This document shows positions 2,721-4,049 of a DNA stretch of 38,761 bases, piece by piece. The stretch's first letter is position 1; every line of letters begins with the position of its first letter. Source of the DNA: Pseudorhodoplanes sinuspersici. Lineage in GTDB: Bacteria > Pseudomonadota > Alphaproteobacteria > Rhizobiales > Xanthobacteraceae. The notes beneath the pieces were generated by a model, which worked only from the letters and a program-made list of their open reading frames with translations, made no database searches and was not told where the DNA came from. Position numbers and translations under genes: made by a program. The DNA lies in assembly GCA_945878025.1 (NCBI GenBank), contig CAMDXM010000007.1, forward strand, positions 1 through 38,761. Direction: 5' to 3'.

Positions 2721-2820
2721 TTCGCGATAGCGTTCCCAGGCTGCTGTATTTTACGCCAACACAACGTTTGCTTGCGTCACTTCCAGTGCTTAACCTTGGG
2801 CTGATCCAAGGGAGGGCCAC

Positions 2821-3660
2821 ATGCATCTCATCAGGATGTATGCCGAAGATGTTATCGGTGGTGCAATTACGACGATCATCGGGACCGCGATTGTCTGGCT
2901 GGTGTCAAGTTACGGAACGCTCACACTTGACGTTTTGTACGTCGTGGCACCGGTATTATTCTTCGCATTTTTTCTCATCAAATTTCTCACGCGATGGGCT
3001 TCATTTGTTTTCATGACGGGCCTACGGGAAGCACGCGGTCTATTTATCGAAATTTACATTGTAGAGAAGAACGCTCGCCGTTGCGTTATCATTGCGCCGA
3101 TGGTTGTTTACTTTGATGTGTGGAGAGATTCTCTCGCAATCGCAGGGCAGGCATTCGAGAGAATGGAGACGAAAACGCCGAATTTCAAATTACACGCACA
3201 TTGGCACAGCCTCTGTATTCATCCCATAGTTCACAAAGACGACTTTCATATTTCCTATTTGCACGATGGCGAGCTGGTCGGCGAGAAACCGGATGAAATA
3301 CCGGGAACCACCGCCTGTAAGCTCCCACGATCTTCCGCGATGCATTGCCGAAGGGGCTATTTCTGTGATCTCGTGCAAGTCAATAACGCGCTCGACGACG
3401 CCAACGGCACGGGCCCTGATTATTTCTCAGCTTCCTATTTTGAAGTTATTCGTGCACCACGAAACTTGGAACAGGAGTTTTTCAACGGAATCATAAGACG
3501 ATGGGAGAGATGGGCGTGCCGCTTACGGCTGATGTCGCCTCGTGAGGATACGTTCACGAGCTTTGTGAACGGATACGGGGATGCGGTGCTCGCCAACAAT
3601 CCAAATGCACAAGGCCCCATCATGCAAGAGGCGAAAATGATTGTAGAGAGGTTCGTATGA
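2821..3660 (+). CDS. Hypothetical membrane protein, two N-terminal TM helices plus a soluble, apparently beta-rich domain
   Basis: 279 aa; hydrophobic segments near aa 10-28 and 35-58; SD-like gggagg just upstream; stop overlaps the downstream ATG (ATGA at 3657-3660). Confidence 0.8.
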   Translation: MHLIRMYAEDVIGGAITTIIGTAIVWLVSSYGTLTLDVLYVVAPVLFFAFFLIKFLTRWASFVFMTGLREARGLFIEIYIVEKNARRCVIIAPMVVYFDVWRDSLAIAGQAFERMETKTPNFKLHAHWHSLCIHPIVHKDDFHISYLHDGELVGEKPDEIPGTTACKLPRSSAMHCRRGYFCDLVQVNNALDDANGTGPDYFSASYFEVIRAPRNLEQEFFNGIIRRWERWACRLRLMSPREDTFTSFVNGYGDAVLANNPNAQGPIMQEAKMIVERFV

Positions 3661-4049
3661 CTGACGACAAGCGGGCAATACATGATCGCCTCAAAAATCT
3701 TTTGCGGCATGCCCATGCGCCGTATTCCGGATTCAAGGTCGCCGCTGCCGCAATCGATGAACAAGGAAACGCTCATTTCGGAGTGAACGTGGAGAATCAA
3801 TCTTTTCCAGTCGGCACATGCGCCGAGGCCGGAGCACTTTCGGCGCTCCGGGTCGGCGGCGGAGCGCGCGTGGTCAGGCTCTATCTTCTTTCAGAACCCA
3901 ATATTGAGGTCGTACCTTGCGGCGCGTGCCGGCAAAGGCTAGCGGAGTTGGGGGACGCGTCGACTGTTGTCGTTACATTCAGCGCCAACGGTGATGAAAT
4001 TTCATATCCAATGGAAAAGCTATTTCCACATAGCTTTCGGTTCAGGTAG
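3657..4049 (+). CDS. Cytidine deaminase family protein
   Basis: Zn/catalytic motifs GTCAEAGAL and PCGACRQ; NVENQSF substrate motif; overlaps upstream gene by 4 nt. Confidence 0.9.
   Translation: MTDDKRAIHDRLKNLLRHAHAPYSGFKVAAAAIDEQGNAHFGVNVENQSFPVGTCAEAGALSALRVGGGARVVRLYLLSEPNIEVVPCGACRQRLAELGDASTVVVTFSANGDEISYPMEKLFPHSFRFR

What the first reader, a model, noticed from the sequence alone, without database searches (positions are those of the whole stretch)
2821..4049. Low-GC, translationally coupled cassette: 2TM protein with beta-rich domain plus cytidine deaminase
The two genes overlap by ATGA, are visibly AT-richer than neighbouring lepA and the GGDEF-EAL gene, and sit between those core-like genes. 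The deaminase keeps CAE and PCGxC motifs. The partner has two N-terminal TM helices and a soluble domain with spaced W/G/Y patterns (FDVWRDSLAIAGQAFE, HAHWHSL, DFHISYLHDGEL, CRRGYFCDL), suggesting a beta-barrel. This outline recalls the S-2TM-beta effectors of CBASS (Cap15 type), but I cannot show homology by eye. A membrane effector paired with a nucleotide-modifying enzyme is a plausible undescribed defence or nucleotide-signalling module.
Basis: partly seen in the sequence, partly recalled or inferred. Interest (0 to 1): 0.7.

Follow-up and report, generated by a model that had tools for sequence, protein, structure and literature searches.

The report
Orphan membrane protein–cytidine deaminase gene pair
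A foreign-looking pair of overlapping genes, one for an unknown two-helix membrane protein and one for an intact cytidine deaminase, sits at a site that is occupied differently in each related genome checked (one holds a phage-defence gene); it may be a small defence or nucleotide-control module, but no function is shown and the proposed kinship to the CBASS effector Cap15 does not hold.

Summary
Two ORFs overlap by ATGA (2821-3660, 3657-4049). Both have GC3 0.55, against a mean of 0.777 (sd 0.061, minimum 0.651) for 26 other window ORFs. The second is a cytidine deaminase with its active-site residues intact. The first has a two-helix N-terminal hairpin and an unknown ~215-aa domain; it is an orphan in every collection searched. 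The Cap15/S-2TMbeta idea was tested and not met (no PF18153 match; profile probability 0.7%; no PDLNGxW motif).

Two new points. (1) The interval between lepA and an L,D-transpeptidase gene is variable in the genus; the slot next to lepA holds an AbiD gene (GC3 0.41) in one relative and an unknown low-GC3 gene in another. (2) In this bacterial family, where such deaminases are rare, the four others found also neighbour a small membrane protein. Those partners weakly resemble the phage-defence effector PycTM but are not related to this orphan. None of 30 other loci of the order has such a partner; several are nucleoside-salvage operons.

Best reading: an acquired module of a nucleoside enzyme and a membrane protein, plausibly defence; the mechanism is inferred. 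An ordinary passenger salvage gene is nearly as likely.

The parts
2821..3660 (+). Orphan inner-membrane protein, 279 aa: predicted two-helix hairpin (about residues 11-29 and 38-56), both ends probably cytoplasmic, then a soluble domain of about 215 aa of unknown fold
   Evidence: ORF; hydropathy and charge after TM2; no family match; no credible relative; GC3 0.55
2851..2994 (+). Predicted two-TM hairpin of the orphan protein (codons 11-58)
   Evidence: Hydropathy peaks 1.97 (start 11) and 2.49 (start 38); helices at pLDDT 70-78 in the AlphaFold2 model
3657..4049 (+). Cytidine deaminase, 130 aa, free-nucleoside type (TIGR01354/PF00383), with F26, N44, E46, C55, E57, C88 and C91 in place
3657..3660 (+). 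ATGA start/stop overlap coupling the two genes
   Evidence: Sequence
2721..2820 (+). 100-bp intergenic stretch after lepA, with a Shine-Dalgarno-like GGGAGGG 4 bases before the first ATG; no convincing promoter in the scan
   Evidence: Sequence; scan at chance level

Best explanation
A horizontally acquired, translationally coupled two-gene module inserted in a variable interval just downstream of lepA. Gene 1 makes an inner-membrane two-helix hairpin carrying a cytoplasmic domain; gene 2 makes an active deaminase of free cytidine/deoxycytidine. The proposed mechanism (inferred) is that the membrane protein is the output of a small conflict or defence system and that its cytoplasmic domain responds to a pyrimidine nucleoside or nucleotide whose level the deaminase sets. 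A change in that pool, for example when phage infection breaks down host nucleic acid, would release or trigger the membrane protein and disturb the membrane. Shown: the coupling, the foreign composition, the catalytic residues, the variable site, and that related deaminases in this bacterial family also have small membrane partners. Inferred: membrane toxicity, ligand sensing and the defence role.
For: ATGA overlap and identical GC3 of 0.55 in both genes, lower than any of 26 other window ORFs. Catalytic and ribose-binding residues intact. The lepA-LDT interval differs in the relatives compared, and its lepA-proximal slot holds an AbiD gene (GC3 0.41), an unknown gene (GC3 0.48) or a caspase-like gene in other members of the genus. 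Deaminases this similar are rare in the family (5 of 300 genomes) while a related query finds one in 228 of 398 genomes of the order. The four other family loci found each have a small membrane protein beside the deaminase; those partners match PADLOC PycTM models weakly (E 2.7e-4, 4.2e-4 and 0.014). One partner overlaps the deaminase by 4 nt, as here. None of 30 control loci of the order has a small membrane partner.
Against: No relative of the membrane protein exists in any collection searched, so its pairing with a deaminase cannot be tested across genomes. The PycTM-like partners are not detectably homologous to it (hhalign probability 0.3%). Their PycTM matches are weak, and Pfam PycTM was not matched. 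Loci L090-L092 are one orthologous site, so independent cases are few. Small membrane neighbours of cdd also occur in housekeeping operons elsewhere (for example a dgkA-like gene, L079). Several genes in the variable interval are not defence genes. No phage-defence family matches either protein.
Confidence: 0.38

Rival explanations
1. Ordinary acquisition: a pyrimidine-salvage cytidine deaminase moved in together with an unrelated or species-specific membrane protein; the coupling is incidental and there is no defence role.
For: The deaminase is a catalytically normal free-nucleoside enzyme. Homologues in the order and on plasmids sit in salvage operons with ABC permeases, purine-nucleoside phosphorylase, deoC or deoA. 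Orphan genes of odd composition are common in genomes (general knowledge).
Against: No salvage gene was seen near the pair; the overlap and shared GC3 argue that the two genes travelled and are translated together; the other deaminases of the family also have small membrane partners.
Confidence: 0.36
2. The deaminase is the effector: it depletes or corrupts cytidine nucleosides on infection (as AvcD does with deoxycytidine nucleotides), and the membrane protein is its sensor, anchor or inhibitor.
For: Deaminases are proven anti-phage effectors in avcID (PMC10511110); the genes are coupled.
Against: The family is the free-nucleoside type (N-V-E ribose-binding motif; TIGR01354), not dCMP or nucleic-acid deaminases; hosts tolerate such enzymes as housekeeping salvage genes; no Rfam antitoxin RNA match.
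Confidence: 0.12
3. Resistance or detoxification cassette: the deaminase inactivates a cytosine-nucleoside antibiotic and the membrane protein assists at the membrane.
For: Blasticidin-S deaminases are weakly similar; the cassette looks acquired.
Against: The closest families are cytidine, not blasticidin, deaminases; a two-helix protein is not a typical exporter; no resistance neighbour was seen among the genes scanned near it.
Confidence: 0.08
4. The membrane protein is a Cap15/OptE-type S-2TMbeta effector gated by a cyclic dinucleotide.
For: Two N-terminal TM helices plus a soluble domain; the genome does carry a CD-NTase with JAB and ThiF-like genes, on another contig.
Against: No PF18153 or PADLOC match; own-genome PF18153 search empty; hhalign against seven Cap15 relatives gives probability 0.7% (self-control 100%); the PDLNGxW motif is absent (consensus against P0001); no CD-NTase is adjacent.
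Confidence: 0.03

Closest known systems
Pycsar (PycC cyclase + PycTM membrane effector)
   Same: Small operon of a pyrimidine-nucleotide enzyme and a membrane protein (PMC11224242); the membrane partners of related deaminases (L090-L093) weakly resemble PycTM
   Different: The enzyme is a deaminase, not a cyclase; the window's own membrane protein does not match PycTM
CBASS Cap15 / Panoptes OptE (S-2TMbeta)
   Same: Two-pass membrane element followed by a soluble domain (PMC12657218)
   Different: No sequence or profile relationship, no shared motif, no CD-NTase or mCpol partner seen beside it
2TM effectors with other sensor domains (2TM-CARF, 2TM-SAVED, Cap1)
   Same: Two TM helices plus a cytoplasmic ligand-binding domain; in Cap1 it opens a pore (PMC12642688; PMC12657218)
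   Different: No family match of the soluble domain; no CRISPR or mCpol partner seen beside it
AvcID deaminase defence
   Same: A cytidine-type deaminase in a two-gene unit
   Different: AvcD is a deoxycytidylate deaminase paired with an RNA antitoxin (PMC10511110); here a free-nucleoside deaminase with a protein partner
Kongming (dITP-signalled defence)
   Same: Precedent for a non-cyclic nucleotide as a defence messenger (PMC12948488); that KomA is a deaminase is from memory
   Different: Different chemistry and a different effector; no homology tested
Housekeeping cytidine deaminase (cdd) of pyrimidine salvage
   Same: Enzyme family and active site
   Different: No salvage operon; divergent (tree end branch 1.53, highest identity 49% over 104 columns); coupled to an orphan membrane protein

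Membership tests
S-2TMbeta (Cap15/OptE) | Match to Pfam PF18153 or a PADLOC model | tested here: not met
   No match at E up to 10; none in own genome
S-2TMbeta (Cap15/OptE) | Profile similarity to real members | tested here: not met
   hhalign probability 0.7% against 7 members; positive control 100%
S-2TMbeta (Cap15/OptE) | Two-pass TM element before a soluble domain | tested here: met
   Hydropathy and helices in the model
S-2TMbeta (Cap15/OptE) | Soluble beta-barrel | tested here: inconclusive
   AlphaFold2 soluble part mostly below pLDDT 50; mixed alpha/beta suggested
S-2TMbeta (Cap15/OptE) | Adjacent cyclic-nucleotide synthase | tested here: not met
   Neighbours are lepA, the deaminase and GGDEF-EAL; the CD-NTase found is on another contig
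PycTM (Pycsar effector) | Match to PycTM profiles | tested here: not met
   No match of the window protein in Pfam or PADLOC; none in own genome
Cytidine deaminase, homotetrameric free-nucleoside type | Family profile match | tested here: met
   PRK05578 106.2 bits (cut-off 74) and PF00383 44.7 bits (cut-off 25) are over cut-off; TIGR01354 109.3 bits is just under its cut-off of 113.65
Cytidine deaminase, homotetrameric free-nucleoside type | Zinc ligands and catalytic Glu (C-A-E, PCxxC); ribose-binding N-x-E | tested here: met
   C55, E57, C88, C91, N44, E46, aligned with solved enzymes
Anti-phage defence system | Protection against phage | not testable with these tools
   Needs plaque assays
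Anti-phage defence system | Location among defence genes | tested here: inconclusive
   No defence gene beside it, but the same slot holds AbiD in one relative

The most novel reading that the evidence does not exclude
An undescribed class of two-gene conflict systems in which a free-nucleoside cytidine deaminase is paired with interchangeable small membrane effectors (PycTM-like in L090-L093, an orphan 2TM protein here), the deaminase setting a pyrimidine signal that gates membrane damage.
Probability: 0.22. Interest if true: 0.75.

Novelty: new variant of a known kind. Interest (0 to 1): 0.42.

Why it matters
If the pair works as proposed, a plain salvage enzyme would act as the control element of a membrane effector, extending nucleotide-signalled immunity from cyclic nucleotides to free pyrimidine nucleosides. 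The lepA-downstream slot would also be a marked place to look for further small defence genes in this genus.

Tried and rejected
Cap15/S-2TMbeta membership: rejected by Pfam, PADLOC, hhalign and motif. Relatives of the 279-aa protein: weak short hits in G003, G398, G524 and G775. The first three were read and fall in or across other genes in another frame or strand; the fourth has 3 stops inside; all judged chance. AlphaFold2 on the whole protein and on the soluble part: too poor for a fold search, so Foldseek was not run. Plasmid and phage searches with the membrane protein, and plasmid searches with the cassette DNA and the partner proteins: no match. Plasmid-borne deaminases: the Azospirillum and Burkholderia cases read are salvage operons; the Synechocystis copies have hypothetical neighbours. 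Promoter and terminator scans near chance; no boundary repeats that explain insertion. No structured-RNA match above a gathering score. The literature searches found no cytidine deaminase + membrane effector system, but only open-licence papers are held.

Full report
Observation. Both ORFs are present at the stated coordinates: 2821-3660 (279 aa) and 3657-4049 (130 aa), overlapping by ATGA. The composition claim is right and stronger than stated. Third-position GC is 0.550 in both genes, against 0.815 in lepA, 0.817 in the GGDEF-EAL gene, and a mean of 0.777 (sd 0.061, lowest 0.651) over 26 other window ORFs of at least 130 aa. Equal, unusual composition in two overlapping genes points to joint acquisition. 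The window lies in a 3.94-Mb draft genome of 365 contigs, whose name the tools do not give.

Gene 2. The 130-aa protein is a cytidine deaminase of the free-nucleoside type: PF00383 and PRK05578 are above their cut-offs, and TIGR01354 scores 109.3 bits against a cut-off of 113.65. Alignment with solved enzymes and residue positions show the zinc ligands C55, C88 and C91, catalytic E57, and the N44-V-E46 ribose motif. It should therefore be active on cytidine/deoxycytidine; this follows from the family and was not assayed. It is divergent: its end branch in a 115-row tree is 1.53, its best identity there is 49% over 104 columns, and it has no well-supported placement. The genome has three other PF00383 loci; one lies between ruvA- and ruvB-like genes.

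Gene 1. The 279-aa protein has two strong hydropathy peaks (windows starting at 11 and 38) separated by a short loop, with basic residues after the second. This suggests a hairpin with both ends in the cytoplasm (inference, positive-inside rule). It matches nothing in Pfam, PADLOC or PHROGs at E up to 10, only a chance-level match (E 0.084) in NCBIfam, and nothing in PDB sequences. Searches of plasmids, phages, viral contigs and one scan of GTDB contigs gave no relative. Whole-genome searches over 200 family, 398 order and 318 class genomes (the samples overlap in part) gave only weak short hits. The three loci read place those hits in or across other genes in another frame or strand, and the fourth contains three stops. 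Single-sequence AlphaFold2 models are poor (mean pLDDT 44.7 and 37.3). Only the hairpin reached 70-78, and both models drew mixed strands and helices with a helical C-terminus, not an all-beta barrel. I did not run a fold search on them because matches would be meaningless.

The Cap15 idea. Seven Cap15/S-2TMbeta proteins from the same order were fetched with PF18153 and aligned. They share PDLNGxW-like, GxYW-like and RxxxG motifs that gene 1 lacks. hhalign gave a probability of 0.7%, with the positive control at 100%. The own genome has no PF18153 or PycTM match. It does have a CD-NTase (SMODS, DncV-like) next to JAB and ThiF-like genes, but on another contig. So 'is a Cap15' fails. 'Works like a 2TM effector with a cytoplasmic sensor' remains possible: the two-TM plus sensor-domain plan is known from OptE, 2TM-CARF and 2TM-SAVED (PMC12657218) and Cap1 (PMC12642688).

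The site. In most related genomes read, lepA is followed, after a variable interval, by an L,D-transpeptidase gene (LDT) and a conserved downstream block (an endopeptidase-like gene, often the TauE-like and Yip1 genes). The lepA-LDT interval is about 3.9 kb here, 4.9 kb in G093, 2.4 kb in G112, 3.3 kb in G071 and 4.5 kb in G038. None of the relatives read carries the window's pair. Next to lepA, G071 has an AbiD/Abi_2 gene of GC3 0.41, G093 an unknown 245-aa gene of GC3 0.48, and G144 a caspase-domain gene. Other relatives have sensory, glycosyltransferase-like or unassigned genes there, judged by eye. The interval is thus a general variable region that also receives a defence-type gene, not a defence island.

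Related deaminases. In the same bacterial family, deaminases similar to gene 2 are rare: 5 of 300 genomes at E 1e-15, including the window. In the order, 228 of 398 genomes have one at E 1e-18 with the L092 query. The thresholds and queries differ, so the contrast is indicative only. The four other family loci all have a small membrane protein with three hydropathy peaks beside the deaminase on the same strand: L090, L091 and L092 at one orthologous site (downstream; 4-nt overlap in L092), and L093 (upstream, gap 112 bp). The partners match PADLOC PycTM models weakly: L092 2.7e-4, L090 4.2e-4, L093 0.014. The L090-L092 family also aligns to a more PycTM-like protein in G055 (L173, PADLOC 6.2e-5; hhalign 91%) and more weakly to the L093 partner (42%, E 2.6e-4). 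In 30 control loci of the order no membrane partner under 300 aa with several TM peaks was found by the same script; hits were ABC-permease-like and purine-nucleoside-phosphorylase-like neighbours. Leaving out the window, two independent sites against none of 30 gives p = 0.002; counting it, 1.8e-4. This was noticed after the fact and is to be read with caution. Elsewhere small membrane neighbours also occur in plain operons, such as the dgkA-like gene of L079. Gene 1 is not detectably homologous to these partners (hhalign 0.3%). If the pattern is real, the membrane partner is exchangeable.

Mechanism. The most likely reading is a small acquired conflict module in which the deaminase governs a pyrimidine ligand of a membrane effector. 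The sequence supports coupling, catalysis, foreign origin and an exchangeable site. Sensing, gating and toxicity are inference. The ordinary passenger reading is nearly as probable, because a single orphan gene beside a normal enzyme allows it. I found no paper describing a cytidine deaminase with a membrane effector in the open-licence library, which does not prove absence.

Noticed in passing
L178 (G000:C148), 140-2129: The same genome carries a CD-NTase (SMODS, DncV-like) next to oppositely oriented JAB and ThiF-like genes, apparently a CBASS-type locus at a contig end; its effector was not seen.
   Followed up: partly
L161 (G071), 276-1232: An AbiD/Abi_2 gene of GC3 0.41 sits directly downstream of lepA in a genus relative, in the slot of the window's cassette.
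   Followed up: yes
L159 (G093), 208-945: Unknown 245-aa protein of GC3 0.48 in the same slot; by eye a stretch hints at a nuclease fold, with no Pfam or PADLOC match.
   Followed up: partly
L165 (G144), 365-1222: Caspase-domain (Peptidase_C14) protein in the lepA-downstream region of another genus member.
   Followed up: partly
L172 (G000:C183), 59-1755: Three successive small membrane proteins of similar layout, probably paralogues, one weakly matching the deaminase-partner profile (E 3e-4).
   Followed up: no
L006 (G000:C19), 1414-1836: A second divergent cytidine-deaminase-like gene (140 aa) lies between ruvA- and ruvB-like genes.
   Followed up: no
L173 (G055), 1255-2231: A PycTM-like membrane protein follows an unknown 159-aa gene, with no deaminase among the ORFs listed; possibly another two-gene module.
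   Followed up: no
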